Positions 70 through 13,966 of a stretch of DNA of 20,003 bases are shown here, piece after piece. The notes beneath the pieces are model-generated. The model did no database searches. It was not told the DNA's origin and saw nothing but the letters and a program-made list of their open reading frames with translations. Position 1 is the stretch's first letter; each line of letters opens with the position of its first letter. The DNA comes from a virus, in IMG/VR virus record IMGVR_UViG_3300027857_000069, positions 1 to 20,003 of that record; one strand, 5' to 3'. Position numbers and translations under genes: made by a program.

Positions 70-105
70 CCCCTGTTCGGGGAACGAGGCGACCCTACGC
101 GGGTC
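70..105 (-). terminator. Tandem hairpins ending the leftward transcription unit
   Basis: Two inverted repeats follow the last leftward gene: GACCC/GGGTC (91-95 and 101-105, overlapping its stop codon) and CCCC/GGGG (70-73 and 79-82). No T-run follows, so intrinsic termination is uncertain. They could instead be a processing or Rho-linked end. Positions 1-69 show nothing recognisable. Confidence 0.35.
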
Positions 106-625
106 AGGCGGCCTTGTCAAGCTCCAGCCCGGCGGCCCGCAGGCCGTCGATCAGAGCCGTCGTGGCGGGCAGGTTGGCGACCTTGGCTTCGCTGCCGTCC
201 GGGAGGAACCGCGCCAGTTCTGGCCACCGCTCCACGAAGGCCTCGTGCGTGTTGACGCTGGCGAGGTTGTTCCGCAGCTCGCGGTCGAGGGTTGTGAACT
301 TGTCCTCCTGCTCCTCGTGCAGGCGGCACAGCTCGACGATCTCGGGGTCCCTCTTGATGGCGTCGTGGCGGCTCTCGAAGCCGGGAATGCTGACGCTCGC
401 CGCGTAGCTCCGCCGGTTCGTGTCGTAGTTGAAGTAGATCGAGTGGGTGTCCAGCAGGCCGCGCGTGGTCGTGTCCTCCCACAGCCGCTTGGCGGCAGCG
501 GGCAGCTCGAAGACGGCGAGCTTTAAAGCTGCCTTCCTAATCTGCTCCACGTAGTCGGTCTTCGGAACCTCGGCGAGGATCGCTCTCCTGATCTGGTTCC
601 GCTGCTCGTTCACAAGACGGGTCAT
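104..625 (-). CDS. Nmad5-like putative nucleotide-modification-associated protein
   Basis: This 173-residue protein is the last gene of the leftward replication block. Its start overlaps the stop of the DUF2800 nuclease by 4 nt (ATGA), so the two are probably translationally coupled. The N-terminal region is helical and basic (MTRLVNEQRNQIRRAILAEV). A mid segment reads THSIYFNYDTNRRSYAASV, and near the C-terminus comes THEAFVERWPELARFLPDG. This layout resembles phage proteins labelled Nmad5, a family named for its association with nucleotide-modification genes. The family's biochemistry is not established, and no catalytic residues can be pointed out. One CTTTAAAG copy (522) encodes Leu-Lys in AALKLAV. 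The assignment is from recalled family resemblance only; otherwise it is a hypothetical phage protein. Confidence 0.55.
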   Translation of the reverse strand: MTRLVNEQRNQIRRAILAEVPKTDYVEQIRKAALKLAVFELPAAAKRLWEDTTTRGLLDTHSIYFNYDTNRRSYAASVSIPGFESRHDAIKRDPEIVELCRLHEEQEDKFTTLDRELRNNLASVNTHEAFVERWPELARFLPDGSEAKVANLPATTALIDGLRAAGLELDKAA

Positions 626-1863
626 TCGCTCGCTCCTTCTGCAAGGCCTAGGGCTTCCACTACAGAGCCGAAGGCTTCCTCGGTTGTCTCCACCCGCACG
701 CCGGGCTTGGGGTCATCCCATGGGGCCACGGTGAGGCCGGTGGAGGGCATGTACGCGTACTCCTTCACGAACTCCTTGGCGTCCGGGCCGAGCTTCTCCA
801 GTTCCGCCGGGCTCTTCAGCTCCGGCTTGGTGAAGGCGTCGCCCCCGAACTTCTTCTTCGCCAGCTCGGGGGCCTCGGGCTTGAACACCCGGTTCGCCCG
901 CTTCGGCACCAGCTTCGCCACGTCCTCGAACGTGTGGCCGTGGTTGAGCCGCCGGAAGATTTCCGCGTCCAGCGCGCCCAGGTAGAACTTGACGGCCTCG
1001 CGGTAGCGCCAGCTCCGGCCCAGGCTCTCGTCCGAGTAGTTGACGATCTCGGCTGGGTTGGCCACCGCTGCGGCTTTAAAGAGCCCAGTCAGCAGCGGGC
1101 AGACCAGCTTCGCCGGGCAGAAGCGGCACCAGGGGCCAGCGTCAAGGGTGTTGTCGATCTCGGCGTTCGCCATGGCGGGCACGAGGACCGAGTGTACCCA
1201 CTCCTTCAGCTCGCCGACCGTGGTCCACCATTCGCGGATCGGCCCGGCCAGATGGAAGGCGCGCGGCTGCACGATGCGGATGCAGACCCGGAGGTCGTCG
1301 CGGAAGACGATGGCGCTCGACCGTTCGATCTGGTCGATCACGCCGAAGGCGTAGTACATGCCCTGCGGGTTCTCTTCCGGCTCGACGATGATCCCCTCGC
1401 CGCCCTTCAGATCGGTGACGAGCAGGTACTCGCTGGGGTCCTTCCCCATGTCGGCCATGAGCAGGCGGTTGCGGATCGGGATGAGCGCGGCGAGGTCAGC
1501 GGACCCGTAGAAGTCGGGGTGGACCGGCGAGCTGATGCGGTACTCGACTTGCCACCAGGACGCCTTGTCGATGTCCTTCCGCACGCTGTCGAGATAGACC
1601 TGGATCGCGTCCGCCATGGGCGCGTCGATCTTCGTCTCGTTGAAGGTCTCGCCCACGATCTCCCAGGTGTCGAGCCCGCCCTTAAGGCAATGCTCGGCGG
1701 CCTCGTGCATGGCCGTGCCCTCGCGGCGGTAGTCCGGCTCGTCGCTCTCCGGGAGCTTCAGCTCGCGCAGGAGGGACACGCTGCCGGGGCAGTTCATCCA
1801 GCGTTCCGCACCCGAGGCCCCGAGGGGCGAGTGCTCGCGCTTGCTGTGATCTGGTTGGTCCAT
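622..1863 (-). CDS. DUF2800 family RecB/Cas4-like PD-(D/E)XK nuclease
   Basis: A 413-residue nuclease-like protein, probably acting in phage recombination or DNA end processing. The N-terminus has the family signature SGAERWMNCPGS (residues about 17-28). PD-(D/E)XK features follow in order: His53 in AMHEAAEHC, Asp123 in GSADL, the catalytic D-x-K in TDLKGG (Asp151, Lys153), and Gln167 in ENPQGMYYAFG. Cys25 with Cys246, Cys249 and Cys255 (PWCRFCPAKLVCP) matches the four-cysteine Fe-S arrangement of Cas4/AddB-type nucleases. Length is normal. The start is ATG after an AAGGA ribosome site and a CCCAGGCA leader box. The last about 20 residues (TTEEAFGSVVEALGLAE) match a linker peptide in the primase-helicase. 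DUF2800 genes usually sit beside replication genes, as here. Confidence 0.85.
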   Translation of the reverse strand: MDQPDHSKREHSPLGASGAERWMNCPGSVSLLRELKLPESDEPDYRREGTAMHEAAEHCLKGGLDTWEIVGETFNETKIDAPMADAIQVYLDSVRKDIDKASWWQVEYRISSPVHPDFYGSADLAALIPIRNRLLMADMGKDPSEYLLVTDLKGGEGIIVEPEENPQGMYYAFGVIDQIERSSAIVFRDDLRVCIRIVQPRAFHLAGPIREWWTTVGELKEWVHSVLVPAMANAEIDNTLDAGPWCRFCPAKLVCPLLTGLFKAAAVANPAEIVNYSDESLGRSWRYREAVKFYLGALDAEIFRRLNHGHTFEDVAKLVPKRANRVFKPEAPELAKKKFGGDAFTKPELKSPAELEKLGPDAKEFVKEYAYMPSTGLTVAPWDDPKPGVRVETTEEAFGSVVEALGLAEGASE

Positions 1864-2015
1864 TGCCTGGGTCCTTCTTTAAAGCGTCGGGGCCGCGTCC
1901 GCCCCAACTCGTCTCTCGTCTCTCCGCCCGATATGTTCACCTCAACGTCTGCGAGGAGGTGGGAGACTTTGCCCTCGGGCCTAGCGGGGCACTGGCTGTT
2001 CCTCGGGAGGTCCAT
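1794..2015 (-). CDS. Candidate small protein overlapping the nuclease start
   Basis: A 73-codon frame starting MDLPRNSQCPARPEGKV, between the acidic protein gene and the nuclease gene, overlapping the latter by 70 nt in another frame. The main support is a very strong ribosome site (GGAGGAGG) a few bases before its ATG, plus GC-rich third positions. A CTTTAAAG copy (1878) reads Phe-Lys in this frame, as in accepted genes. No family is recognised. It may instead be a leader region whose translation reaches the nuclease start. Without homologues it stays tentative. Confidence 0.4.
   Translation of the reverse strand: MDLPRNSQCPARPEGKVSHLLADVEVNISGGETRDELGRTRPRRFKEGPRQWTNQITASASTRPSGPRVRNAG
1864..1871 (-). 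promoter_or_regulatory. CCCAGGCA leader box, copy 1
   Basis: Read leftward, CCCAGGCA lies directly against the ATG of the nuclease gene. The same octamer occurs just before the starts at 2817 (2833-2840) and 4849 (4860-4867). Role unknown; it lies in the 5' leader, so an RNA-level or translational role is possible. Confidence 0.45.
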
Positions 2016-2060
2016 GACCCTCCTCCGGTTTACGCTTCCAATCGGTTGCCCGGCCTGGGT

Positions 2061-2126
2061 GCCCCACCCCCTCCTTCGTCGGCTGCAATAGCCTCTAGAC
2101 GGGGTGGGGCCGCTGGGTGCCCAGCG
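2061..2126 (-). terminator. Inverted repeat plus hairpin after the acidic protein gene
   Basis: A perfect 10-bp inverted repeat, GCCCCACCCC (2061-2070) and GGGGTGGGGC (2101-2110), encloses a 30-nt loop. Next to it is CGCTGG-GTGC-CCAGCG (2111-2126). Both lie just downstream of the leftward gene ending at 2149. No U-tract follows, so they may terminate, attenuate or protect mRNA. The DNA between 1864 and 2148 otherwise holds the candidate small gene, a leader box and one CTTTAAAG. Confidence 0.4.
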
Positions 2127-2148
2127 ATCTCCCAGGCAAGGGAGGGTG

Positions 2149-2817
2149 TCAGGCGGCCTTCGTCAGGCCGCCGAGCTTGGTGATGAAGTCCGCCCGCTTC
2201 TCCGGGGGGATTTCCCGGAGCTGGAAGGCCTTCGTCGGGTCGGGGTTGTACTTCTTGATGAGGCCCCGGATCAGCTCCGGGTCGCTCAGCTCCGCATTCT
2301 TCCGCTGGACGGCGGCGTTCAGTGCGGCGTCGGTGATCTCCTCGACTTCGCCTTCGACCGCGAAGTCCTCGCTGCCGGGGGTCTCGCCGTCCACCGTGAA
2401 GTCGTCCACGGCGTTGGCCGGGTCGTCCTCAGGGGCGTCGGGTTCGTCCTCAACGATGGCCGCCGGGTCCACCTCGCCCTTCGGATGGGCGGCCTTGGCG
2501 AGCGCAGCGTCAGCCGCGATCTCAGCGGCGGTGCGGCGCTTCCGGCGGGCCGGGGGAGTAGCTTCACCTTCCACCGCAGCCGGGTCCGGCGCGTGGAGAG
2601 CGCCCGTGGGCTCGGGGATTTCGATAGCGGTCTTGCCGCGCAGCGCCGCGTCACCGGCCCGGCGAATGCGGGTCAGGGTGTCGAGGAGCACGCTGTCCGC
2701 GTGGTCGTCATCGTTGAGGGTGACGTTCGCCGTGATGTCGTAGAGGCGGGGAGGCGCATAGTCCGCCGTCTTGATCCCGTCCGAGAAGCGGACGGTAAGT
2801 CCGTTGATCTGTCCCAT
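2149..2817 (-). CDS. Hypothetical acidic, low-complexity protein in the replication block
   Basis: A 222-residue protein starting MGQINGLTVRFSDGIKTADY. The first about 80 residues look folded, with alternating beta-like segments. Residues about 85-170 are rich in Ala, Pro, Asp and Glu and include a basic patch (ARRKRR). A charged C-terminal segment follows (NPDPTKAFQLREIPPEKRADF). ATG 2817 was chosen because AAAGGAGG precedes it and a promoter (2851-2879) with leader box sits just upstream. The frame stays open to GTG 2949, so a longer form is possible. In other phages the partner of a DUF2800 nuclease is often a single-stranded-DNA-binding protein (DUF2815). That role would fit the position, but no such signature is visible. 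Confidence 0.75.
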   Translation of the reverse strand: MGQINGLTVRFSDGIKTADYAPPRLYDITANVTLNDDDHADSVLLDTLTRIRRAGDAALRGKTAIEIPEPTGALHAPDPAAVEGEATPPARRKRRTAAEIAADAALAKAAHPKGEVDPAAIVEDEPDAPEDDPANAVDDFTVDGETPGSEDFAVEGEVEEITDAALNAAVQRKNAELSDPELIRGLIKKYNPDPTKAFQLREIPPEKRADFITKLGGLTKAA

Positions 2818-2832
2818 GCTTTGGTCCTCCTT

Positions 2833-2840
2833 TGCCTGGG
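2833..2840 (-). promoter_or_regulatory. CCCAGGCA leader box, copy 2
   Basis: Second copy, between the predicted transcription start (about 2844) and the AAAGGAGG ribosome site of the gene starting at 2817. It would therefore be at the extreme 5' end of that mRNA. Confidence 0.45.
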
Positions 2841-2850
2841 GTGAGATGCT

Positions 2851-2879
2851 GCAATAGCGGCGCATTTCGATCTTGTCAA
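2851..2879 (-). promoter_or_regulatory. Leftward sigma70-like promoter
   Basis: Read leftward: TTGACA (2874-2879), 17-bp spacer, TATTGC (2851-2856). Predicted start is near 2844, giving a leader of about 27 nt. It lies inside the in-frame extension of the gene it would drive, which supports ATG 2817 as the main start. Confidence 0.6.
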
Positions 2880-2950
2880 GCAGTTCGTGAGCTTTCTGTA
2901 GCTGGTAGATCAGTTCATCGTACTGCCAATCGTCCAGCGTTACTGTCACT

Positions 2951-4591
2951 TTAAAGCCTCCGGTCCAGAGACTTGTGGGTATTCTGGTGCTTCCTCAGTG
3001 CAGACGCGAGGATGCGTTCGATGAAGGAACCGGGCGCGACGAGGAAGTCGGCCTGGACCTGGGCTTGCTGGCCGCCGCGATCCAAGCGATCCACCGCTTG
3101 CTGGTTCACGCCGGGCACCCAGTCGGGTTCGGCGAAGACCGCTCGGTGCGCTACCTCCTGGAGCCCGTCCGTGCCCGTCCCCATGCTCATCATGTTCCCC
3201 ACCAGCACTTGGATGCGGGGGTTCGAGATGAAGGCGTTGACGTTGCGCTGCTTCCCGGCCTGCGACGTGTTGCCGTCGATCCGCAGCACGCCCCAAGGGG
3301 CCAGCTCCTTGCACAGAATGTCGAGCACCTGATGGTGGTGGGCGAACAGGACGATCTTCTCCTCGCCCCCGTCGAGCAGCATGTCCACGTACTCGGCAGC
3401 GAGCGGGGCCATGGCGACGCCCATCAGGCGGCGCACCGTGGCGACCTGACCGAGGCATTCCGCGTCGGCCCCCTCCAGCTCTTCCGGGTCGATGTCGAGC
3501 AGGCGCTCAGCCTGGAGGGCGCGCTTGATCGCGGCGTTCTCCTCGACCTGGATCACCTCGAATTGGGGCATCTGGAGCATGCCGAGCTGGTAGCCCACGC
3601 CGTTGGGGCCGTACTTCTCCCGGCGCACCATGAAGTTGGACCGCAGCCGGGCTTGCAGCTCGCCGTGGCGGCCAGCTCGCTCGTCGATGAAGACCTTCCC
3701 CTTCTCCGTCGTGATCCGGCGGGAGGGGTTGAAGCGGGATTTAAAGGTGTCCTCGCTCATCCAGTCGATGCTGTCGAAGCAGAGGCCTCGCGCTAGCGTA
3801 TAAGCCTCTCTCGGGCGGTTCGGCAGGGGAGTACCCGTAAGAGCAAGGATCGCATCAGCCCGTGTGAAGAGGGCCTCGGCGACCGGGTGCATGCCTCCCC
3901 CGAAAACTGCCCTAGTGCGCTTTGTATCCACCGTTTTGAGGTAGTGCCCTTCGTCGATGATGAGGACGTCGTAGGTTCCCTTGGCGAGCGCCTTCCAGAT
4001 CGCGGGCGAGCTGGCGAGGTCGTAACTTACAACTGTAAAATTCGCAGAGGGGTGGACGCCGTGCCGCCCGTGGACGATGGGATACACCGTGTAGGGGAAC
4101 TTTAAAGTCGTCCACCGCCGGATCACCTTGACCCACTGGAGGCGAATGTTCGCCGGGCAGATGACCAGCACGCGCTTCGCCCCGATCTCGTTGCAGAACG
4201 CGATGGCCTCCGGGCTCTTCCCGAGGCCGGGCACGTCGCCGAACAGGGTGCATTGGCGTTGCAGGGCGTACTCGACGCCCGCGATCTGGAAGGGGGCAAG
4301 CTCCTCGTCGTCGGGGACCTTGATATGCCCCTGGCTTTCCTTCGCCCAGCTCGCGTCGATCTGGCCCTGGAGCCCGATGAGCTGCGCCTGTGCGCGCTCG
4401 GTCGCGTACTGATAGAAGGCCACCGCAGCGTAGGGCTGCTTGGTGAACAGCACGGCCTCCCCCGGCCTGGAGGCGGACGCGGAGAAGTCCAGACCGTGTT
4501 CGGTCATGAGCGACTTCACGTCCGGTGCGCCCGCAGTACGGGGCACCCGGAGGAGGAAAGTGCGGGAGCTGGGGTTGTAGTCTAGCTGCAC
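2951..4591 (-). CDS. SNF2-type (DEAD/DEAH superfamily 2) helicase
   Basis: A 546-residue DNA-dependent ATPase/helicase of the SNF2/SMARCAL1-like type found in many phages. Motifs run in order: Walker A GDVPGLGKS (residues about 118-126), VLVICPA (141-147), DEGH (213-216), LTGTP (251-255), and in the second lobe SMGTGTDGLQ and QAVDRLDRGGQ (motifs V and VI). Canonical SNF2 proteins read GLGKT and RxxRxGQ, so these are mild variants. Likely role: remodelling forks or recombination intermediates with the nearby nuclease and primase. The start appears to be GTG 4591, six bases after the stop of the 83-aa gene, with no good ribosome site, so translation is probably coupled. Its stop lies in a CTTTAAAG. 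A 12-bp operator-like palindrome sits inside the gene at 4027. Confidence 0.88.
   Translation of the reverse strand: MQLDYNPSSRTFLLRVPRTAGAPDVKSLMTEHGLDFSASASRPGEAVLFTKQPYAAVAFYQYATERAQAQLIGLQGQIDASWAKESQGHIKVPDDEELAPFQIAGVEYALQRQCTLFGDVPGLGKSPEAIAFCNEIGAKRVLVICPANIRLQWVKVIRRWTTLKFPYTVYPIVHGRHGVHPSANFTVVSYDLASSPAIWKALAKGTYDVLIIDEGHYLKTVDTKRTRAVFGGGMHPVAEALFTRADAILALTGTPLPNRPREAYTLARGLCFDSIDWMSEDTFKSRFNPSRRITTEKGKVFIDERAGRHGELQARLRSNFMVRREKYGPNGVGYQLGMLQMPQFEVIQVEENAAIKRALQAERLLDIDPEELEGADAECLGQVATVRRLMGVAMAPLAAEYVDMLLDGGEEKIVLFAHHHQVLDILCKELAPWGVLRIDGNTSQAGKQRNVNAFISNPRIQVLVGNMMSMGTGTDGLQEVAHRAVFAEPDWVPGVNQQAVDRLDRGGQQAQVQADFLVAPGSFIERILASALRKHQNTHKSLDRRL
4027..4038. promoter_or_regulatory. 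TTACAACTGTAA operator-like palindrome inside the helicase gene
   Basis: This 12-mer is identical to the site at 12389-12400 and is the reverse complement of the one at 12437-12448 in the main regulatory region 8 kb away. It is encoded by AT-rich, otherwise uncommon codons. It may be a distal binding site of the same regulator. Confidence 0.5.
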
Positions 4592-4597
4592 TGGGCT

Positions 4598-4849
4598 TTA
4601 AAGGCCCAAGCTGTATTCGCCGTCGTGCAGGCTCTCGGGCCGGAAGAACCGGTAGAGGGCCATCCAGCGGGCGCGTGCCTTGCTCTCCTGGCGGTCCCGC
4701 TTATGTCGGCGGGCGGGGGTCGCGAGGAGGCGGAAGCCGCCGGGGCTGAAGTGCTGGCTGACGGTGTGCCCCGCCATGGCCTCGGCTTGCCTCACGGCCC
4801 GCAGGGCGTAGCCGCTCTTGATCTGCTGCTTCAGGGTGTTCTTCGTCAT
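4598..4849 (-). CDS. Small basic protein of unknown function
   Basis: An 83-residue, strongly basic protein (MTKNTLKQQIKSGYALRAVR; later TPARRHKRDRQESKARARW). The cluster of Arg and Lys in residues about 46-60 suggests nucleic-acid binding, but no family is recognised. ATG 4849 was chosen because AGGAGA precedes it at good spacing and a promoter with leader box lies just upstream; a longer frame reaches into the divergent primase gene and is unlikely. It is the first gene of the unit that includes the SNF2 helicase, and its stop codon is the TAA of a CTTTAAAG (4597), six bases before the helicase start. It could be a helicase or replication accessory factor. Confidence 0.7.
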   Translation of the reverse strand: MTKNTLKQQIKSGYALRAVRQAEAMAGHTVSQHFSPGGFRLLATPARRHKRDRQESKARARWMALYRFFRPESLHDGEYSLGL

Positions 4850-4859
4850 CGTGGTCTCC

Positions 4860-4867
4860 TGCCTGGG
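4860..4867 (-). promoter_or_regulatory. CCCAGGCA leader box, copy 3
   Basis: Third copy, immediately before the AGGAGA ribosome site of the gene starting at 4849. It overlaps the left edge of the rightward promoter's -35 region (4869-4874). Confidence 0.45.
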
Positions 4868-4868
4868 G

Positions 4869-4898
4869 TTGACAACGTGTGGTGAAGGGTGCTTTCTA
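4869..4898 (+). promoter_or_regulatory. Candidate rightward promoter for the primase-helicase
   Basis: TTGACA (4869-4874), 18-bp spacer, weak -10 TTTCTA (4893-4898). The same six bases on the other strand form the -10 of the leftward promoter. Predicted start is near 4905, about 25 nt before the primase ATG. Confidence 0.45.
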
Positions 4899-4921
4899 AG
4901 GCGGTCTAGGACACCCGTCAA
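4893..4921 (-). promoter_or_regulatory. Leftward promoter for the small basic protein and SNF2 helicase
   Basis: Read leftward: TTGACG (4916-4921), 17-bp spacer, TAGAAA (4893-4898). Predicted start is near 4886. It shares its -10 with the rightward promoter, so polymerase could occupy only one at a time. Confidence 0.55.
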
Positions 4922-4929
4922 GCGGAAAC

Positions 4930-6804
4930 ATGCAGCCACTATCAGACCTCCACGCCGAAGCACGCCGTCTCGCCAGCAATGGCGTCCCCGTGTTCCCGTG
5001 TAAGGTGGATTTAAAGCAGCCTGCGACCGAGAACGGATTTCACGATGCTTCGACTGATCTTGCGGTTATTGATCGCTGGTGGTCGGAGAACCCGCGCTAT
5101 AATATCGCGTTCTCTCCCCATACTGTAGGCCTAGGGATCATCGACCTCGACGGCCAAGAGGGGATGGACGCGTGGGAGAAGTGGCAAGATGACCATGTTC
5201 GGATGGCCAAGACCTACACAGTACGCACTCCGCGAGGTGGGGTCCACCTTTACTATCGTGGTATCCTCCCAGCTACTCAAAGCAAGCTTGGAGTACACAT
5301 TGATACACGAGGGGTCGGTTCTTACGCCCTTGTACCCCCTTCCGTCGTCAACGGCTCACCTTATACTGTACTCGATAGCCGAGATGCTGTGGAACTTGAC
5401 CCACAAGTGGGGGCGTTCCTTGAAGCTTTAAAGCGCGAGCATGCCAAGTCTGTCGGCCACGATCTGGACCAGCCGCAGAATGTCGCACGCGCCCGGAAGT
5501 TCCTGCTCGATAGCGTTGCCCGTGGCGACGTGGCGGTCGAGGGGCACATGGGCGACCAATTTACGTTTGTAATTTCCTGCAAGGTCATGAACCTGGGGGT
5601 CTCCGAAGAGACGACCGCCGCGCTCCTGACCGAGCTTTGGAACCCCCATTGCGTACCGCCATGGGACGAAGATGAGCTGGCGTGCAAGGTCGAAAACGCA
5701 GCTCGCTACGCCCAGAACGAGGCGGGCGCATGGGCCGCAGGCTCCTCAGAGGAGGCGTTCGGATCAGTCCTAGACACGCTTGATCTGGGCGAAGAAGAAC
5801 CTCCCGAGGAGGAGCCTGCGGCCCGCCCCAAACGCGAGCGGTTCAAGCTGTGGACGCCGGGCGAGCTGCGGAAGCGGCCCCCGCCCTCCTGGCTCATCCC
5901 CGACCTCTTCCCGTCCGGCGGGATCAGCGTGCTCTTCGGCCCTCCGGGCTCTTTAAAGTCCTACCTCGCCATCCGCTGGGCCGCCGAGCTGGCCGCGCTT
6001 GGGACCGGCGTCGTGTACGTCGCGGGCGAGGGTGCCAATGGGATCGCGCAACGCCTCTTCGCGTGGCAACAGGCCAACGGAGTGGGCGATGATCTGCCCC
6101 TCTGGATCATGGACGAAGCGCCGTGGGCCGCCGACGACGAGGCCAAGCTAGCGTTCTGCAAGAAGCTGGAGACCGTCAAGCCGCAGCTCGTGGTCATCGA
6201 CACCCTGGCGCGGACGGCGGTGGGCCTGAACGAGAACGACGCGCGGGACATGGGGATGATGGTCTCCTTCCTCGACGCCATCAAGACCAAGATCGGATGC
6301 GCGGTGCTGGTCATCCACCACACCGGCAAGGAAGAGGGGCGCGGCATGCGCGGCTCCAACGCCCTTGAGGGTGCGTGCGACGCGGCGTTCCAGGTCTCCC
6401 GCAACAAGGGCCTGCGCGCGGTGAGCGTGCGGTGCGTCAGGCAGAAGGACGCCCCCGAGCGTGAGGAGCCGTGGTGCTTCGAGGGTCGGGACATTGGCGG
6501 GCAGATGGTCCTCCAGCCTGTGACCTTTAAAGACTACAGCGACCTGACCCGCGTCCAGGACACACTCCAGCCCGTCGAGATTGGGCGCATCCTCCGGGAG
6601 CTGTCGGCGGTGGGAGTGGAGAACGGGGTCTCGACCAACGTCCTGGCCTACGACATGGTGAACCGGGCGAACCCGGAGCTGACCGAAGAGGCACGGGCGA
6701 CCCTGGTCGGGCGTCAGGAGAAGGTGCTAGCGAAGCTCAGCCGGACGAAGCTGGAGGCCTATTGCACGGGCGTTGGCCCGAGCCTCCTGTGGTTCCTGCC
6801 CTAG
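4930..6804 (+). CDS. Primase-polymerase/AAA helicase fusion (replication protein)
   Basis: A 624-residue replication protein with two domains. Residues about 1-180 are a bifunctional primase-polymerase (Prim-Pol): FPCKVDLKQP, GIIDLDG with catalytic Asp72 and Asp74, and TPRGGVHLYYRG with His106. Residues about 325-600 form an AAA_25/RepA-like helicase: Walker A GPPGSLKS (337-344), VVYVAGEG, Walker B VVIDT (421-425), and VLVIHHTGKEEGRGMRGSNA. An acidic linker (about 272-300) carries SSEEAFGSVLDTLDLGEEE, which resembles the nuclease C-terminus. It probably primes and unwinds DNA at the phage origin. ATG 4930 has only a weak ribosome site (GGAAA). The Prim-Pol half, to about 5430, is AT-richer than the rest. 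Walker A has Leu where Gly is commoner; that codon lies in a CTTTAAAG (5952). The stop codon overlaps the convergent gene's stop. Confidence 0.88.
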   Translation: MQPLSDLHAEARRLASNGVPVFPCKVDLKQPATENGFHDASTDLAVIDRWWSENPRYNIAFSPHTVGLGIIDLDGQEGMDAWEKWQDDHVRMAKTYTVRTPRGGVHLYYRGILPATQSKLGVHIDTRGVGSYALVPPSVVNGSPYTVLDSRDAVELDPQVGAFLEALKREHAKSVGHDLDQPQNVARARKFLLDSVARGDVAVEGHMGDQFTFVISCKVMNLGVSEETTAALLTELWNPHCVPPWDEDELACKVENAARYAQNEAGAWAAGSSEEAFGSVLDTLDLGEEEPPEEEPAARPKRERFKLWTPGELRKRPPPSWLIPDLFPSGGISVLFGPPGSLKSYLAIRWAAELAALGTGVVYVAGEGANGIAQRLFAWQQANGVGDDLPLWIMDEAPWAADDEAKLAFCKKLETVKPQLVVIDTLARTAVGLNENDARDMGMMVSFLDAIKTKIGCAVLVIHHTGKEEGRGMRGSNALEGACDAAFQVSRNKGLRAVSVRCVRQKDAPEREEPWCFEGRDIGGQMVLQPVTFKDYSDLTRVQDTLQPVEIGRILRELSAVGVENGVSTNVLAYDMVNRANPELTEEARATLVGRQEKVLAKLSRTKLEAYCTGVGPSLLWFLP

Positions 6805-7193
6805 TGGAGGGTCTGACCGGCTGTTGCCATTTCGGTGTGGTCGGCGCGGAGGTCCACGGCAACCCACTTGCGAAGCTCGGTGAACAGCTCGATGCGCTCG
6901 TCATCCGCGAGCTTTAAATGATCCGCGAGCCTGCGGAATTCGTCCACGATCTCGTGTAGGTAGCCCAGGCACACGATGCCCTCGGCAACTTCCAGGCCGT
7001 GCTGCTTGCGGAGGATGGTCCAGAGCGCCCCGTCCTCGTCCACGCTGGCCGTCCCCACGATCTGCGGCGGGTGCTTGGCCGACTTCCCGATGATCTGAAG
7101 GAAGATCGCGCCGAGCATGGTCTGATTGCCGCGCGTGGCGACAATGGCCTTGTACTGCCAGGACGCTTGCTCGTCGGTCGGGGTGTCGAACAT
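6801..7193 (-). CDS. Hypothetical phage protein
   Basis: A 130-residue soluble protein (MFDTPTDEQASWQYKAIVAT) with a beta-rich first half and a helical, acidic second half (RLADHLKLADDERIELFTEL). No family recognised. ATG 7193 follows AGGAG at good spacing. Its stop overlaps the primase-helicase stop tail to tail through a shared CTAG, so transcripts from both sides converge here. A structured leader of about 100 nt precedes it. The CTTTAAAT variant at 6913 encodes Leu-Lys. Confidence 0.72.
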   Translation of the reverse strand: MFDTPTDEQASWQYKAIVATRGNQTMLGAIFLQIIGKSAKHPPQIVGTASVDEDGALWTILRKQHGLEVAEGIVCLGYLHEIVDEFRRLADHLKLADDERIELFTELRKWVAVDLRADHTEMATAGQTLH

Positions 7194-7210
7194 GGGGGCT
7201 CCTAAAAAGA

Positions 7211-7265
7211 GGGCTCCCCTACGCCGCCTAGTCCTTGCGGGACCGGTCTTGACGCGGGGGAGCCC
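7211..7265 (-). terminator. Nested hairpin with U-tract; possible attenuator
   Basis: Read leftward, GGGCTCCCC (7257-7265) pairs with GGGGAGCCC (7211-7219) around an inner GTCC/GGAC hairpin (7231-7243). The outer 3' arm is followed at once by TCTTTTT and then by the AGGAG of the next gene. This is terminator-like, placed in the leader of the gene at 6801-7193, so it may end the upstream unit or act as an attenuator. Confidence 0.5.
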
Positions 7266-7293
7266 AAGTCATGCACACGTCGAAGGGGGTAGC

Positions 7294-7653
7294 CTAGGCC
7301 GCCGCGCGCTCGCTGTCAAGGGCCAGACGGTGGGCCTTGCGGACGGCGGCGCGGACCTCCTTGATCGTCCGCTCCGGCTTGTCATTCCAGTTGGCGATGG
7401 AGACCGCTTCCGGGCGCTCCCCAGGCTTGGCGAGAGCCTGACAGATGAACCGCTCGGCGAGGTCGATGGAAGCCCAGCCGCCAGACGGGCCGACCGCGCG
7501 TTGCACCGCGCCGCGCAGGCAGAAACATGAGGCGTCGGGGTGGCTGGCGCTGATGCGGTCGCCCCTCTTGTTGAAGGCATAGAACCCCTTCGCCCAGCGG
7601 TCGGCGCGCTTGAACAGCGCCAGCACGCCCTTTAAAGTATCAGATGCGCTCAT
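7294..7653 (-). CDS. DUF6197-like hypothetical protein
   Basis: A 119-residue protein. Its pattern resembles DUF6197 proteins of phages and actinobacteria: an N-terminal helix, W-x-KGFYAFNKRGD, a Cys-containing segment CFCLRGAVQRA, and the closing AIANWNDKPERTIKEVR-type motif (here SIANWNDKPERTIKEV). The family's function is unknown. ATG 7653 directly follows the stop of the upstream gene, and AGAGGAGA lies inside that gene's end, so translation is coupled. The CTTTAAAG at 7631 falls in codons 6-8 (TLK). Confidence 0.65.
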   Translation of the reverse strand: MSASDTLKGVLALFKRADRWAKGFYAFNKRGDRISASHPDASCFCLRGAVQRAVGPSGGWASIDLAERFICQALAKPGERPEAVSIANWNDKPERTIKEVRAAVRKAHRLALDSERAAA

Positions 7654-8355
7654 CTATCCATCTCCTCTGTTGACGCCCGCTCGCACGGAGCCGGGCAGGT
7701 AGTTGCGGTTGAGGGGCGCGGTGTAGCTCAGCCGGGCCTTGTCCTCGTGGTTGCCCCAGTCCCGCAGGAAGAACAGCCGGGCCGCCTCCTGATAGGCGTA
7801 GAGCTGGGGGTCGGGCGCGAGGTCCGCGACCCGCTCCAGGCTGTCGGCCTGACGGCGGAGCTGCGCGGCGCGCTCACGATTGCGATGGGCGATGCCGACT
7901 TTAAAGCCACGGTTGTAGCCCTTCCGGTCGGCTTCGTCGATCTCGTGGTCATAGGCGCGTTGCGTGAGCTGCACGATCTGGTCACCCGGAACCTCGGGCA
8001 TATCCCGCCAGTCGGTACGGTCACGCGGCGAGAGGTAGCCCGTCCGCGCCCACTCCGGCGCATAGGCCCCGCTCGGCCAGAGAAGGCCGGGCACGACGGT
8101 CTGCGGCTCGGGCACGGGATGATAGCCGGTCAGCACGTTGATATGCCCCGGCTCCGTCTCCGAAGGCAGGTAGGTGCGGACGAACCGCTCCTTGATGGGG
8201 CCGTAGCTGTCGGCGCGCAGGTAGGCCGCCACCAGTCCGGGGTGGCCCTTGAACTTGAAGTGGATGCGGGCCGCGTCCAGAGCCTTGGCGTAGGCGTGGA
8301 AGTCTCCCGCGTCCTCGGAGCGCCGACCGTCCGCATATTGATAGATCAGCTTCAT
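7654..8355 (-). CDS. Hypothetical phage protein
   Basis: A 233-residue protein (MKLIYQYADGRRSEDAGDFH) of unknown family. It has a probable long helix (residues about 155-190, rich in Arg, Gln and Glu) and many aromatic residues near the C-terminus. ATG 8355 is preferred over an upstream in-frame ATG because GAGGAG from the end of the upstream gene precedes it; CTTTAAAG (8359) fills the space between that ribosome site and the ATG. Its central basic-helical region reads GIAHRNRERAAQLRRQADSL. It is the third gene of the four-gene unit 8808-7294. Confidence 0.72.
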   Translation of the reverse strand: MKLIYQYADGRRSEDAGDFHAYAKALDAARIHFKFKGHPGLVAAYLRADSYGPIKERFVRTYLPSETEPGHINVLTGYHPVPEPQTVVPGLLWPSGAYAPEWARTGYLSPRDRTDWRDMPEVPGDQIVQLTQRAYDHEIDEADRKGYNRGFKVGIAHRNRERAAQLRRQADSLERVADLAPDPQLYAYQEAARLFFLRDWGNHEDKARLSYTAPLNRNYLPGSVRAGVNRGDG

Positions 8356-8878: not shown

Positions 8879-9256
8879 CTAGACCTTGATCTCGAACCGG
8901 GCCGCGTGGCCGGGATCGCCGGTCGAAGCCGCCTCATAGACCCCCGAGCCGTGGGAGGCCGCCGCAGCGTCTTCAGCCGCCCACCGGGCCGCTAGATCGC
9001 GGAGCGGCGCGCAAGCCTCCATCAGCTCCTTGGCCCGCCCGTAGGCGGTCTCCAGCTCGCCCTTGATGTAGTTCTGGCCGCCGGTACGGTTGGCCGCGTT
9101 GGAGATGCGGTAGCCCGCCGCGTCCTTGCGGAGCGCACTCAGCGAGCTATCCAGCTCCCACGCCACGCCGTCAACGACGGTCACGATCTGCGTGAAGTCG
9201 TCGCTGTCGCTCAGCTCCTCGGCGGAAACTACCAGTGCTTTAAAGGTCCTGCTCAT
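8879..9256 (-). CDS. Hypothetical phage protein
   Basis: A 125-residue protein (MSRTFKALVVSAEELSDSDD) with a beta-strand N-terminal part, then helices rich in Ala, Arg and Glu. No family recognised. GGAGG in the last codons of the upstream gene serves as its ribosome site, and the genes are 5 nt apart. The CTTTAAAG at 9239 encodes Phe-Lys in codons 5-6. It is the last gene of the SprT unit. Confidence 0.7.
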   Translation of the reverse strand: MSRTFKALVVSAEELSDSDDFTQIVTVVDGVAWELDSSLSALRKDAAGYRISNAANRTGGQNYIKGELETAYGRAKELMEACAPLRDLAARWAAEDAAAASHGSGVYEAASTGDPGHAARFEIKV

Positions 9257-9261
9257 CGCTC

Positions 9262-9660
9262 TTAGTCCTCCAAAAATTCCGGCTCAGCCGGGATCGACCA
9301 TTCGTCCGCCTCCTCGTGTGCGGCGATCACGGCGCGGCGTCGCGCCAGCTCATCCGGGTCGAGGACTACCCGGCTCTTGGACGTGCGCTTGCCATGGTCC
9401 GGGAACCATTCCCGGCGCTTCATGGTGCGCCCGTACTTCTGAAAGGTCTCGCCGGTCTCCTTCGCCAGGGGGTGGCTTGGGGCCAGTTCGCCGATCAGTC
9501 GCGCGATTGCTCCGGTCTCCTTGGGCGTGCCAAGGATCACAGAGACGCGCTTCACTAGGTCGGAGGTGGAGGTAGGCCCTTCGATCTGCCGAAGGGCCGC
9601 TCCTAGAGCCTCTTGGACCTTGTGCCGCCTAAGGCGGGGGTGAAGGTCCGCGAGCGTCAT
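9262..9660 (-). CDS. Possible winged-helix DNA-binding protein
   Basis: A 132-residue protein. Residues about 18-90 read like a winged helix: a first helix (KVQEALGAALRQIEG), PTSTSDLVKRVSVIL as the second, KETGAIARLIGELA as a recognition helix, then a basic beta-hairpin (TFQKYGRTMKRREWF) as the wing. This is inferred from the pattern; no named family is matched. Its start overlaps the stop of the SprT gene (ATGA), so the two are coupled. It could be a phage transcription factor acting on the operator families seen elsewhere in the window. The C-terminus is acidic (EPEFLED). Confidence 0.65.
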   Translation of the reverse strand: MTLADLHPRLRRHKVQEALGAALRQIEGPTSTSDLVKRVSVILGTPKETGAIARLIGELAPSHPLAKETGETFQKYGRTMKRREWFPDHGKRTSKSRVVLDPDELARRRAVIAAHEEADEWSIPAEPEFLED

Positions 9661-10598
9661 TCTCCGTCACCCTCCCCTAGGTCTTCGGCTCCCTCGATAT
9701 CGAGCTTGCCGCCGCAGTCCGCATCAGGGCAGATGAGCCGCTTTCCGTTGGCGTGCTTTGCCGTGATCCGCAGCACCAGCTCGCAGGCGTCGCATGTGCC
9801 CTTGAGGAGGTACGTCTTCTTCTTGCCGCCCCTCAGGCCGGGGTTGATTTTGGCGTGAGGGATCGGCCCCAGCTCGGCGAGGATCGGCTCGGCCCATTCG
9901 CGCCAGCCGTCGCCCGCCGTGGTGGCGGTCATCTTGCCTTCGAGCCCGACCCCGGTTGCGACCTTGCGGAAGTCGCTCCCGTGGTTGTTGCCCTTGTCCT
10001 TGATGCCGACCGTCGCATGGACCAGCTCGTGCGTCACCACGTCCGCGATGCGGGCGCTGTCGTCGAGCGTCGGGATGACGAAGATTTCAAAGGTCCCGTC
10101 TTCGGACGCCTTGTCGCTCCAGCATTGCCCGATTGCCTTGCGCCCGCCCTTCATGAAGCCCACGGAGACGCGGACCTTTTCCGGGATGGTGAAGCCGCGC
10201 TCCGCGAAGATCGGGCGAGCCGCCTTCACGAAATCGTTCAGCCACTCCTCGCGCGTGCCCTCATAGACCGCATCGGCTTTAAAGGTGAACGTCTTGGAGC
10301 CCGTGGGCGGGACCGGCGCGGCCTTCGGCTCTTTGGGAGCCTTGGGCTTGCTGGGCTTCGCCTTAGGAGGCTGGGGAGCTTCCGGCGCATCGTCGAGGAA
10401 CACGGGCGGTTCGGCTTCCGCCGATCCCGTGTGCTCGTCGTTGAGCTTGCGAGCCGTCCGATAGGCGGTCTTGCCCAGCGGGTAGCTCTTGCCAGTCCTG
10501 GTCCCGTGCAGCGTCAAATAATAGAAGCTGTCCGCCTCGTCATGCTCGACGTTATAGGGGCCAGAGCCGACGTTTGGCTCTGTGAGATGAGTTGACAT
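9657..10598 (-). CDS. SprT-like zinc metalloprotease with C-terminal zinc ribbon
   Basis: A 313-residue protein. After an N-terminal region of about 60 residues and a Pro/Lys-rich linker (about 70-100) comes a SprT-like domain with HELVH (190-194) and a third zinc ligand, His206, in NNHGSDFRKVA. A zinc ribbon follows, with Cys269, Cys272, Cys290 and Cys295. SprT/Spartan relatives include proteases that cut DNA-bound proteins. In a phage the target could be host nucleoid or DNA-protein crosslinks, which is inference. ATG 10598 is preferred over the in-frame ATG five codons upstream because GGAGG lies 8-9 nt before it. It is the first gene after the strongest leftward promoter and its operators. 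The CTTTAAAG at 10278 encodes Phe-Lys. Confidence 0.82.
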   Translation of the reverse strand: MSTHLTEPNVGSGPYNVEHDEADSFYYLTLHGTRTGKSYPLGKTAYRTARKLNDEHTGSAEAEPPVFLDDAPEAPQPPKAKPSKPKAPKEPKAAPVPPTGSKTFTFKADAVYEGTREEWLNDFVKAARPIFAERGFTIPEKVRVSVGFMKGGRKAIGQCWSDKASEDGTFEIFVIPTLDDSARIADVVTHELVHATVGIKDKGNNHGSDFRKVATGVGLEGKMTATTAGDGWREWAEPILAELGPIPHAKINPGLRGGKKKTYLLKGTCDACELVLRITAKHANGKRLICPDADCGGKLDIEGAEDLGEGDGE

Positions 10599-10624
10599 AA
10601 GTGATACCTCCATTCCAACCGGGC

Positions 10625-10653
10625 TATATAGTCCGATTGGGTAAATCTGTCAA
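10625..10653 (-). promoter_or_regulatory. Strong leftward promoter for the SprT unit
   Basis: Read leftward: TTGACA (10648-10653), exactly 17 bp, TATATA (10625-10630). This is the most consensus-like promoter in the window. Its spacer holds an operator-like palindrome (10630-10643), and a second copy lies upstream (10684-10697), so it is very likely repressible. Confidence 0.75.
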
Positions 10654-10697
10654 ATCCGCTCTCTCTAGCCGTTTTGATAGACTTACCAAATCGGGCA
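10630..10697. promoter_or_regulatory. Two operator-like copies of TACCCGATCGGGTA
   Basis: Two inexact copies of a 14-bp palindrome: 10630-10643 (10/14 match, reversed, within the promoter spacer) and 10684-10697 (11/14, forward). They face each other 54 bp apart, and the 12 bases at 10633-10644 and 10683-10694 form an 11/12 inverted repeat. Three better copies lie at 12268-12333. Confidence 0.6.
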
Positions 10698-10754
10698 TAT
10701 GCTAGGTATCGAATGCCGCTAAGGCCCCGCTCCCTGCGGGTCGCCGTCCTGCGG

Positions 10755-10783
10755 ACGATACCATGGGAATTAGGGTTTGTCAA
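10755..10783 (-). promoter_or_regulatory. Second leftward promoter upstream of the SprT unit
   Basis: Read leftward: TTGACA (10778-10783), 17 bp, TATCGT (10755-10760). It would give a leader of about 150 nt running through the strong promoter and its operators. Confidence 0.5.
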
Positions 10784-10829
10784 GAGGGTAAACCACAGCT
10801 CCGCTCTTGCTGGCCGCAGGATACCGCGA

Positions 10830-10877
10830 GGGGCGAGCCCCGCAAAGCTTCAGCTCCCCCTAGTTTCCTAGAGGGAG
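10830..10877 (-). terminator. Hairpins after the small-gene unit
   Basis: GGGGC-GA-GCCCC (10830-10841) and CTCCCCCTAG/CTAGAGGGAG (10854-10863 and 10868-10877, 9 of 10 pairs) lie downstream of the leftward gene ending at 10914. No T-run follows, so they are weak terminator candidates. Confidence 0.35.
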
Positions 10878-10913
10878 CATCCGCTTTAAAGCTAGTCGCG
10901 GGCGAAACCGCTC

Positions 10914-11255
10914 CTAGGCCGCGTCAGCTTGCGCCGGGCGGTCGATGATCGAAGCCGGGCCAAGGTCAGCCATGAAGGCCGCTTCCTGATCCGGGAAGAG
11001 CTTCCAGAACTCCGCCAGGAGCAACCCGGCCACTCGGGACACACACGCGACCTGATAGACCGCGATAGTGTCCTTGTAGATGCGGGGCGAGCCCGGAGCC
11101 TTCCAGAAGCCCAAGGCGAAGCCGGGAAGGAGGGTATAGCCTCCCGCCAGCTCTAGCGCCTTGGCCGCCCAGTCATTGCGGGCCTTCTCGTAAGAGAGCC
11201 CCGCGTTAGTGTTCGTGGGCAGATTGAATTGATAGAGGTTCAGCTTAGTTTCCAT
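10914..11255 (-). CDS. Hypothetical phage protein
   Basis: A 113-residue protein (METKLNLYQFNLPTNTNAGL) with many aromatic residues, a Gly/Pro-rich middle (LLPGFALGFWKAPGSP) and a helical segment YQVACVSRVAGLLLAEFW. It probably folds as a small globular protein rather than a membrane one. ATG 11255 was chosen over an upstream in-frame ATG because AGGGA precedes it. It overlaps the end of the 43-aa gene by 11 nt. It closes the five-gene unit. No family recognised. Confidence 0.68.
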   Translation of the reverse strand: METKLNLYQFNLPTNTNAGLSYEKARNDWAAKALELAGGYTLLPGFALGFWKAPGSPRIYKDTIAVYQVACVSRVAGLLLAEFWKLFPDQEAAFMADLGPASIIDRPAQADAA

Positions 11256-11376
11256 CGTGCGGTTCCCTGTATTCGTGAGCATACATGACGCGCTCACATT
11301 CGACCTCGCAGGCTTCGTCGAGATAGAGTTCTATTTCGCTCTCTAGCTCTTCGATTTCATAAGGATTGGGGTCCAT
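11245..11376 (-). CDS. Very acidic 43-residue protein
   Basis: This protein (MDPNPYEIEELESEIELYLD) has 15 Asp/Glu and only two Arg in 43 residues, with two Cys (EACEVECE). It is probably mostly helical. GAAGAGG precedes the ATG, which lies two bases after the stop of the two-helix membrane protein gene. Small acidic phage proteins are sometimes DNA mimics or inhibitors of host enzymes; that is a possibility, not something the sequence shows. Confidence 0.62.
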   Translation of the reverse strand: MDPNPYEIEELESEIELYLDEACEVECERVMYAHEYREPHDGN

Positions 11377-11378
11377 TG

Positions 11379-11648
11379 CTAGACCTCTTCCTTGACGTGT
11401 TTCTTCAGCTCTTCGTCGTCGTATAGGTATTCGGCGACGCATGCGAAGAAAGCCGCGATTGCCACGCCCACCTTTTGCACGGGGCCTGACCACATTTGCC
11501 CGAAGGCTGGCCAGAGACACGCGAGCAGATCAGCGAAGAAGAGCACAAGCGCCGCATGGATCAGAGCCCATTTGACGAAGTGCTTTATCTTGCTCACCTG
11601 ATGGTGCGAGACGTGGATAGCGGGGATGGGCGGGAGAACCCGTCTCAT
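11379..11648 (-). CDS. Small two-helix membrane protein, possibly holin-like
   Basis: An 89-residue protein with two likely transmembrane helices, WALIHAALVLFFADLLACLW and VGVAIAAFFACVAEYLY, joined by a short loop (PAFGQMWSGPVQK), and a charged C-terminal tail (DDEELKKHVKEEV). This layout is compatible with a holin, but no endolysin gene is in the window and it sits with early-type genes. An inner-membrane superinfection or host-interaction protein is equally possible. Its start overlaps the upstream stop (ATGA). Confidence 0.68.
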   Translation of the reverse strand: MRRVLPPIPAIHVSHHQVSKIKHFVKWALIHAALVLFFADLLACLWPAFGQMWSGPVQKVGVAIAAFFACVAEYLYDDEELKKHVKEEV

Positions 11649-12333: not shown

Positions 12334-12388
12334 AGCGCCCACGCAATGCGCTCCTATCGGGAGCGATGGCACAGCGCATGCTCTGACC

Positions 12389-12473
12389 TTACAACTGTAA
12401 ACTCGCATTACAGGTGTAATCTACGCGTCCGTTGTCTTACAGTTGTAAAAGGCCCTCCAGTTTACAGGTGTAA
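12389..12473. promoter_or_regulatory. Four TTACA-N2-TGTAA operator-like palindromes
   Basis: Copies at 12389-12400 (TTACAACTGTAA), 12408-12419 (TTACAGGTGTAA), 12437-12448 (TTACAGTTGTAA) and 12462-12473 (TTACAGGTGTAA). Starts are 19, 29 and 25 bp apart. Such an array is typical of a dimeric repressor or activator. A fifth exact copy lies in the SNF2 helicase gene at 4027. Confidence 0.75.
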
Positions 12474-12552
12474 GACCGGTGGGGGTGCCGGGTGGGTCTT
12501 GGTTTGCGCGTCCGCGTGTGTATGCCTCCCAACGTCCTAGCACGCGGCGTCG

Positions 12553-12614
12553 GAAAAATTTCGGAAATCCGAGTAGACCAGGGTAGACCCACTGACAACA
12601 TTGAAAAATTTCGG
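12553..12614 (+). repeat. Direct repeats before the late promoter
   Basis: GAAAAATTTCGG occurs at 12553-12564 and 12603-12614, exactly 50 bp apart. Between them GTAGACC occurs at 12573-12579 and 12583-12589, 10 bp (one helical turn) apart. The second long copy ends one base before the -35 of the rightward promoter, so activator or repressor binding is likely. Confidence 0.6.
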
Positions 12615-12615
12615 C

Positions 12616-12643
12616 TTGACTTCTGGGAACGCCAGTCTATCTT
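12616..12643 (+). promoter_or_regulatory. Rightward promoter for the packaging module
   Basis: TTGACT (12616-12621), 16-bp spacer, TATCTT (12638-12643). The predicted start (12649-12651) coincides with the ATG at 12651, which implies a leaderless or nearly leaderless mRNA. Confidence 0.5.
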
Positions 12644-12650
12644 AGTCACC

Positions 12651-13283
12651 ATGGACACCGAAGCGCACCTCCCCGAGTTCTACCCGCCCATCCCGGACGA
12701 TCCGGGCATGACCCCGGCGTTCGCCAAGATTTCGCCAATCCAGCGGGCGTGGGTCATGGCGTACCTGGAGGCGGGAGATGAGAACGCCAGCGCCGCCGCG
12801 CGCCGCGCCGGGTACGGCCAGGGCAAGGGCGACCACGCCCACGCGTGCAAGCAGGCGGGCTATCGGAACGTCCACGATCCCGATGTCCAGGAGGCGATGC
12901 GTGAGCTGGCCCAAGAGCGGTTCAGGATCGCCGGATACAAGGCCGTGCAGCGGCTCATGCAGATCGTCGAGGACCCGACACACAAGGATCACTTTAAAGC
13001 CATCGAACGGGTGCTCGCCCAGAACGGGATGATCGCCGCGCTCCAGGTGGAGCACAACCACAAGGTCACGGTCACGGAGAGCGAACAGGTCAAGCAGGTT
13101 GTGGCGCTCGCCCGGCGGCTCGGTCTGGACCCGAAGACCCTCCTGGGGTCGGCGGGGGTCGAGTATGTGGATGCGGAGTTTGAGGACGTAACCTCCGCAG
13201 ATCATGCGGAGCAGATGGTCCCCGCCTTGACAGCCCCGGAGGAACCGGCTATGTCGTCTGCCGGATTGGAGGACTTGCTATGA
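12651..13283 (+). CDS. Terminase small subunit-like protein
   Basis: A 210-residue protein heading the packaging module, probably the DNA-recognition subunit of terminase. After a Pro-rich N-terminus comes QRAWVMAYLEAGDENASAAA, the usual helix-turn-helix opening of small terminases that detect a growing set of paired residues, then RRAGYGQG, NVHDPDVQEAMRELAQERF, and a helical oligomerisation region. ATG 12651 was chosen because conserved features begin shortly after it and the promoter lies directly upstream; no ribosome site precedes it. It overlaps the next gene (ATGA). The CTTTAAAG at 12993 encodes Phe-Lys. Assignment rests on position before the large terminase and on the helix-turn-helix pattern. 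Confidence 0.78.
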   Translation: MDTEAHLPEFYPPIPDDPGMTPAFAKISPIQRAWVMAYLEAGDENASAAARRAGYGQGKGDHAHACKQAGYRNVHDPDVQEAMRELAQERFRIAGYKAVQRLMQIVEDPTHKDHFKAIERVLAQNGMIAALQVEHNHKVTVTESEQVKQVVALARRLGLDPKTLLGSAGVEYVDAEFEDVTSADHAEQMVPALTAPEEPAMSSAGLEDLL

Positions 13284-13680: not shown

Positions 13681-13690
13681 AGGAGATACC

Positions 13691-13963: not shown

Positions 13964-13966
13964 GCC

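What the first reader, a model, noticed from the sequence alone, without database searches (positions are those of the whole stretch)
625..5796. Nuclease tail and primase-helicase linker share a peptide
The DUF2800 nuclease ends TTEEAFGSVVEALGLAE (residues 393-409); the primase-helicase linker reads SSEEAFGSVLDTLDLGEEE (272-290). The peptides match at most positions while their DNA differs, so the similarity looks kept at protein level. Short acidic tails such as that of SSB recruit partners; this could be a docking motif for a common replisome partner.
Basis: partly seen in the sequence, partly recalled or inferred. Interest (0 to 1): 0.62.

Follow-up and report, generated by a model that had tools for sequence, protein, structure and literature searches.

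The report
Shared docking motif in phage replisome
Three replication proteins of this phage lineage (a nuclease, a primase-helicase and the single-strand DNA-binding protein) carry the same short peptide, which changes in step from phage to phage, so they probably plug into one shared socket on the replication machine.

Summary
The DUF2800 nuclease tail (393-409) and the Prim-Pol/AAA_25 linker (272-288) match at 10 of 17 residues (score 51; 0 of 2000 shuffles reach it), and 7 of the 10 identical residues use different codons. In about 25 diverged relatives both peptides persist, and nuclease and primase peptides resemble each other within a phage more than across phages (p 5e-5; p 0.001 against the nearest relative). 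The phage's T7-type SSB (DUF2815/PF10991; in relative L003 it lies two genes past the nuclease, so just off this window) carries the same motif in its tail: SSEEAF (SSB), SSEEAF (primase), TTEEAF (nuclease). The tail aromatic is one of the SSB's most conserved residues (42 of 43 F, one Y). Isolated phages (Enc34, APSE-3, phiSa2wa, PaMx28, Gluttony) show phage-specific versions in the same proteins. Best reading: a docking motif for one shared site, most likely the SSB's own OB-fold groove, where crystals of DUF2815 proteins place a neighbour's tail; DNA polymerase is the main rival. No binding was tested. T7's gp2.5 and gp4 tails are the precedent, so this is a new variant of a known kind.

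The parts
622..1863 (-). DUF2800 PD-(D/E)XK nuclease, 413 aa
   Evidence: PF10926 E 3.9e-45, residues 11-387; PHROG 69 exonuclease E 1.4e-71
637..687 (-). Motif copy 1: nuclease C-terminal tail TTEEAFGSVVEALGLAE (residues 393-409)
   Evidence: Read directly; kept as EAFGSVVEALGL in L002 and L003 and EAFGDAIAAL in L004; an aromatic at the anchor in 27 of 28 phages
4930..6804 (+). Primase-helicase: Prim-Pol (11-155), linker, AAA_25 (303-469), 624 aa
   Evidence: PF09250 E 1.5e-29, PF13481 E 2.8e-34
5743..5793 (+). Motif copy 2: primase-helicase linker SSEEAFGSVLDTLDLGE (residues 272-288)
   Evidence: Read directly; AlphaFold2 puts an isolated helix at 273-283 in a low-confidence linker (284-299 below pLDDT 50) between two well-folded domains; F at the anchor in 25 of 28 phages
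2149..2949 (-).
   Evidence: No Pfam hit; homologues only in part of the motif-bearing loci
2951..4591 (-). SNF2-type helicase of the same replication module, without the motif in this lineage
   Evidence: PF00176 E 5.9e-14; C-termini listed

Best explanation
The peptide is a docking motif, a short amphipathic stretch with an aromatic anchor in a flexible tail or linker, shared by the phage SSB, the DUF2800 nuclease and the primase-helicase. It takes each protein to one common binding site. The most likely site is the concave groove of the SSB's own OB fold: the SSB tail docks into the groove of a neighbouring SSB, and the nuclease and primase carry a mimic of that tail, so they are loaded onto SSB-coated single strands and exchange with SSB tails. 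Shown here: the motif, its conservation, its presence in three proteins and its co-variation. From the literature: tail-in-groove packing in DUF2815 and T7 gp2.5 crystals. Inferred: that nuclease and primase bind this groove.
For: (1) The same motif sits in the SSB tail: L003 (closest relative holding the SSB) SSEEAFKDYIG against primase SSEEAFGSVLD and nuclease TTEEAFGSVVE. (2) The SSB anchor F192 is F in 42 of 43 SSBs and aromatic in all, among the three most conserved positions, although the median column conservation is 37%. (3) Within-phage similarity exceeds swapped pairs for nuclease-primase, nuclease-SSB and SSB-primase (each p 5e-5, n 28-29); nuclease-primase also exceeds the nearest relative by PolA (p 0.001). 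(4) Residue -1 is identical in all three proteins in 7 of 25 phages, expected 1.2 (p 2e-4); R-R-R in L011, L018 and L031. (5) Isolated phages show phage-specific versions (nuclease/SSB/primase): APSE-3 NDFDDV/EEFDDL/DEFDDL; phiSa2wa DDFDKL/DDFDEL/QDFDEI; PaMx28 SDFDVV/NDFDSV/DDFDPW; Gluttony TDEDLSNE/SDEDLDND/TDADLDNE. (6) In crystals of Enc34 ORF6, 4JG2, 4KLK and T7 gp2.5 the C-terminus lies in the groove of a neighbour (842 square Angstrom in Enc34); the Enc34 chain is traceable to eleven residues from its end, i.e. to about motif Tyr188 (PMC5686142; sequence). (7) The modelled L003 SSB matches 4klk, 4jg2, 5odj and 1je5.
Against: No binding, complex model or mutation was available. Tail-in-groove contacts in crystals could be packing. 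Nuclease-SSB and SSB-primase similarity does not clearly exceed that with the nearest relative (p 0.15 and 0.20), so those two pairs may reflect shared descent. Nuclease and primase copies resemble each other at +2 and +3 more than either resembles the SSB copy, which could mean a partly different site. The search for SSB or PolA columns tracking the motif was inconclusive. PolA is as universal as the SSB in these loci.
Confidence: 0.55

Rival explanations
1. The shared socket is the phage family-A DNA polymerase: SSB tail, primase-helicase linker and nuclease tail compete for one patch on it, as T7 gp2.5 and gp4 tails do on gp5.
For: PolA was found in nearly every locus with the motif and carries no recurrent copy of it. 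In T7 acidic gp4 tails bind basic patches of gp5 (PMC12593628), the gp2.5 tail is implicated in polymerase and primase-helicase contacts (PMC5686142), and the two T7 tails end alike, DEDGDF and NDTDF.
Against: The motif of this lineage is only mildly acidic and has a helical aromatic pattern unlike the T7 tails; crystals place the SSB tail in the SSB groove; no PolA column clearly tracked motif changes.
Confidence: 0.28
2. The shared socket is another protein: the SNF2 helicase, the acidic protein at 2149-2949, or a host factor.
For: The SNF2 helicase is common in these loci. The motif differs from phage to phage, as it would if it followed a fast-changing partner.
Against: The acidic protein is missing by BLAST from many motif-bearing phages. 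In Enc34 the SNF2 helicase itself ends in a similar aromatic-acidic tail, VIWDDEED. No SNF2 column tracked the motif after allowing for multiple testing.
Confidence: 0.12
3. Chance or composition: acidic, alanine-rich tails and linkers look alike without function, and within-phage likeness reflects base composition.
For: Tails and linkers are of low complexity; the highest shuffled score reached 48.
Against: Observed means 24-26 against shuffled means of 16.5-16.8 (sd 0.6-0.7) in all three pairs; near-invariant anchor; different codons for the same residues; residue-specific co-variation.
Confidence: 0.05

Closest known systems
T7 gp2.5 (SSB) and gp4 (primase-helicase) C-terminal tails
   Same: SSB and primase-helicase of one phage end in similar aromatic-anchored tails (DEDGDF and NDTDF) that contact replisome partners; the SSB here is of the same T7-type fold.
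   Different: Here a nuclease carries the motif too; it lies inside a linker or tail rather than at the terminal Phe; it is only mildly charged in this lineage; and it varies strongly from phage to phage in step.
RPA70N-binding motifs (ATRIP, RAD9, MRE11, p53, PrimPol RBM-A/B)
   Same: Short helical motifs with an aromatic or hydrophobic anchor in disordered regions bring a Prim-Pol family primase and nucleases to an SSB's OB fold (PMC5457501).
   Different: Eukaryotic; a specialised OB domain is the receptor, and I know of no self-tail copy there. Analogy only, no homology claimed.
Bacterial SSB-Ct (DDDIPF) interactions
   Same: A conserved SSB tail peptide with a key Phe (from general knowledge). 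Several SSBs here also end DDEIPF.
   Different: In bacteria the partners bind the tail; here the partners carry a copy of the tail motif, and the shared motif is internal, separate from the DDEIPF end.
Enc34 ORF6 (DUF2815 SSB, 5ODJ/5ODK/5ODL)
   Same: Same SSB family; its tail, with SDAYDEDE at the motif position, packs in a neighbour's groove.
   Different: The paper relates the tail to oligomerisation and to ssDNA selectivity; the passages read here do not mention copies in the nuclease or primase.

Membership tests
T7-type SSB / DUF2815 (PF10991), for the SSB of relatives | Sequence match to the family profile | tested here: met
   L004 E 1.5e-7, L014 E 4.3e-9, L047 E 4.2e-35, above the gathering score; L011 below it (18.2 against 26 bits)
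T7-type SSB / DUF2815 (PF10991), for the SSB of relatives | OB fold like 4klk, 4jg2, 5odj and 1je5 | tested here: met
   Foldseek E 5.5e-13 to 2.2e-5, probability 1.00
T7-type SSB / DUF2815 (PF10991), for the SSB of relatives | ssDNA binding | not testable with these tools
   Shown for Enc34 ORF6 only (PMC5686142)
DUF2800 nuclease (PF10926) | Profile match across the domain | tested here: met
   E 3.9e-45, profile 1-368 of 368
T7 gp2.5/gp4-style shared replisome tail | Motif shared by SSB and primase-helicase of one phage | tested here: met
   seen in relatives, since the window itself does not reach the SSB gene
T7 gp2.5/gp4-style shared replisome tail | Strongly acidic tail with C-terminal Phe | tested here: not met
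   Nuclease and primase motifs of the window are not C-terminal-Phe tails; only the SSBs add a terminal DDEIPF
T7 gp2.5/gp4-style shared replisome tail | Tails bind the phage DNA polymerase | not testable with these tools

The most novel reading that the evidence does not exclude
Phages with the DUF2815/DUF2800/PolA replication module use a phage-specific docking code: SSB, recombination nuclease and primase(-helicase), and in some phages the SNF2 helicase, carry the same co-evolving tail motif for one groove on the SSB. The SSB tail thus acts as a placeholder that nuclease and primase displace by mimicry, and the private wording of the motif keeps each phage's replisome separate from those of co-infecting relatives.
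Probability: 0.4. Interest if true: 0.75.

Novelty: new variant of a known kind. Interest (0 to 1): 0.62.

Why it matters
DUF2800 relatives were found in 1610 of 50,697 phage records, in hosts including Staphylococcus, Streptococcus, Bacteroides, Salmonella, Escherichia and Klebsiella, yet how this replisome holds together is little studied. A motif shared by three enzymes and visible in sequence gives point mutants that can be tested at once, offers a way to find further replisome members (any protein of the phage with that phage's version of the motif), and may explain why replication genes of such phages do or do not mix.

Tried and rejected
Recent DNA duplication or gene conversion: rejected on codon differences. 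The acidic protein at 2149-2949 as general partner: rejected on distribution. PolA and SNF2 as further carriers: no recurrent motif in this lineage. Host sliding-clamp motif (QL[SD]LF type, from memory): the sequence does not resemble it. Finding the receptor from columns that track Arg at motif position -1: inconclusive. Loci without a detected DUF2815 SSB (L040, L063, L069-L071) as a natural control: their nuclease tails have no clear partner match, but their primases were not identified and their polymerases differ, so no conclusion. The automatic rank test in annotated phages often fails to rank the short acidic motifs first among 40-115 ORFs per locus; those examples rest on matching position and wording, not on rank. 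Complex prediction was not possible with the tools offered. Literature searches for a shared tail in these proteins gave nothing relevant, but the library lacks most subscription journals.

Full report
Observation. The window is a 20,003-base IMG/VR phage fragment holding a replication module: DUF2800 nuclease, an acidic-linker protein, SNF2 helicase and a divergently encoded Prim-Pol/AAA_25 primase-helicase. The two peptides are as described: nuclease 393-409 TTEEAFGSVVEALGLAE and primase-helicase 272-288 SSEEAFGSVLDTLDLGE, identical at 10 of 17 positions, with 31/51 DNA identity and different codons for 7 of 10 identical residues. The pair scores 51; none of 2000 shuffles reached that. The primase is the best match to the nuclease tail among the window's ORFs.

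Conservation. Close relatives keep the cores of both peptides unchanged (L002/L005, L003/L006). In L004 (nuclease 67% and primase 43-44% identical) both copies have changed the same way: EAFGDAIAAL in the nuclease and EVFGDALGKL in the primase. About twenty-five more diverged loci, found with the alignments, show the motif in both proteins with phage-specific wording: L014 GSEVFKAYLE and GSETFAAYLD; L013 QQAFGAAVNNL and EDVFGGAVHNL; L015, where the aromatic is lost in both, QERLDPAILAKL and TEAVPPAILDRL. The anchor is aromatic in 27 of 28 nuclease tails and F in 25 of 28 primase linkers, while the rest of the linker varies in length and sequence.

Third carrier. A scan of each locus with its own nuclease tail brought up a third protein, the gene soon after the nuclease. 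It is the T7-type SSB (DUF2815/PF10991); the model of the L003 protein (mean pLDDT 92) matches 4klk, 4jg2, 5odj (Enc34) and 1je5 (T7 gp2.5). The motif lies in its C-terminal tail. In L003 the three wordings are SSEEAFKDYIG (SSB), SSEEAFGSVLD (primase) and TTEEAFGSVVE (nuclease). Over 43 SSBs the tail anchor F192 is F in 42 and Y in one, among the three most conserved columns of the protein. In L003 the SSB lies at 9744, past one small gene after the nuclease, so the window's own SSB should lie just off its left end; it was not seen. Many of these SSBs also end in DDEIPF, the bacterial SSB-Ct pattern.

Statistics. Over 28-29 phages, within-phage similarity of the unregistered tail and linker regions exceeds that of swapped pairs for all three protein pairs (p 5e-5 each, the smallest value 20,000 permutations allow) and exceeds shuffles by more than ten standard deviations. 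With each phage's nearest relative by PolA as control, nuclease-primase stays significant (26.8 against 21.6, p 0.001); nuclease-SSB (p 0.15) and SSB-primase (p 0.20) do not. By position, -4 and -1 co-vary in all three pairs and +2 and +3 in nuclease-primase; -1 is the same in all three proteins in 7 of 25 phages against 1.2 expected (p 2e-4), with Arg in L011, L018 and L031, which have 44-57% PolA identity to one another. The register was set by eye on the anchor and the position test is not corrected for descent or for the number of positions, so it is supporting evidence.

Breadth. Annotated phages show the same thing. Enc34: nuclease GAYDDEDEDDDEV-end, SSB SDAYDEDEDEWDEDEV-end, primase DPFDDEDEV-end, SNF2 helicase VIWDDEED-end. 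APSE-3: NDFDDV, EEFDDL, VapE DEFDDL. phiSa2wa: DDFDKL, DDFDEL, VirE QDFDEI. PaMx28: SDFDVV, NDFDSV, DDFDPW. Bacteroides phage F2: DDFKNI, SDFGDI, VirE DDFGGV. RcRudolph SSB and primase both end DPLA. The Dhillonvirus Gluttony has an aromatic-free version in three proteins: TDEDLSNE, SDEDLDND, TDADLDNE. These were read by eye after the pattern was known, and not every phage shows it: no clear primase copy was seen in CL31 or Achromobacter phage kuwaak_TL2.

Mechanism. A flexible tail or linker (the primase motif is modelled as a lone helix, residues 273-283, in a low-confidence linker) with a fixed anchor and co-varying neighbours in three proteins of one machine points to one shared binding site. 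For the SSB copy there is a structural lead: in crystals of Enc34 ORF6, 4JG2, 4KLK and T7 gp2.5 the C-terminus lies in the concave beta-sheet groove of a neighbouring SSB, 842 square Angstrom in Enc34 (PMC5686142). The Enc34 model stops eleven residues from the end, which by the sequence is at about Tyr188 or Asp189, the motif aromatic; that the aromatic itself fills the groove is an inference. I therefore favour SSB-tail mimicry: nuclease and primase carry the SSB's self-docking motif and are thereby loaded on SSB-coated strands. The polymerase as socket is the main rival, by the T7 precedent (PMC12593628). I put the shared docking function at about 0.88 and the SSB groove as receptor at about 0.6 given that.

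Known or new. T7's gp2.5 and gp4 tails (DEDGDF, NDTDF) and the RPA70N motifs, including PrimPol RBM-A (PMC5457501), are functional parallels. Not found described: a motif common to SSB, DUF2800 nuclease and primase that changes in step from phage to phage. The literature library is open-access only, so this is weak evidence of novelty. Verdict: new variant of a known kind, of good interest because it is directly testable.

Noticed in passing
L003 9744-10388 and other SSB tails: Phage SSBs end in DDEIPF, the bacterial SSB-Ct consensus, separate from the internal motif; this may recruit host SSB partners.
   Followed up: partly
L110 (Escherichia phage Gluttony_ev152), nuclease 8965-10395, SSB 10721-11503, primase 4950-7214: Aromatic-free version of the motif (TDEDLSNE, SDEDLDND, TDADLDNE) in three replication proteins; the primase also ends ATDDDLKD.
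   Followed up: partly
L109 (Rhodobacter phage RcRudolph), SSB 10508-11077 and primase 5313-7826: SSB and primase share the C-terminal end DPLA; the SSB tail also has DDFGNAE and the primase end reads DEFDPLA.
   Followed up: no
window 2149-2949 (-): Protein with a conserved N-terminal domain, acidic linker and conserved C-terminal domain (IRxLI...IPQxxRxxFLxKL), between SNF2 helicase and nuclease in the closer relatives, no Pfam family.
   Followed up: partly
window 104-625 (-): Small protein whose C-terminal part matches Nmad5 (nucleotide modification associated), between the nuclease and the expected SSB.
   Followed up: no
L040, L063, L069, L070, L071: Related phages where a different ~255 aa protein ending in a conserved GQRRRPxA basic tail sits in the SSB position.
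   Followed up: no
L106 (Vibrio phage 1.055.O), nuclease end and P-loop protein 12375-14777: The nuclease ends AKFPPVQENK and the P-loop NTPase ends VKFAPVEKAVN, a further co-worded pair.
   Followed up: no
window 9657-10613 (-): SprT-like protein gene (PF10263 E 8e-7) in the phage.
   Followed up: no
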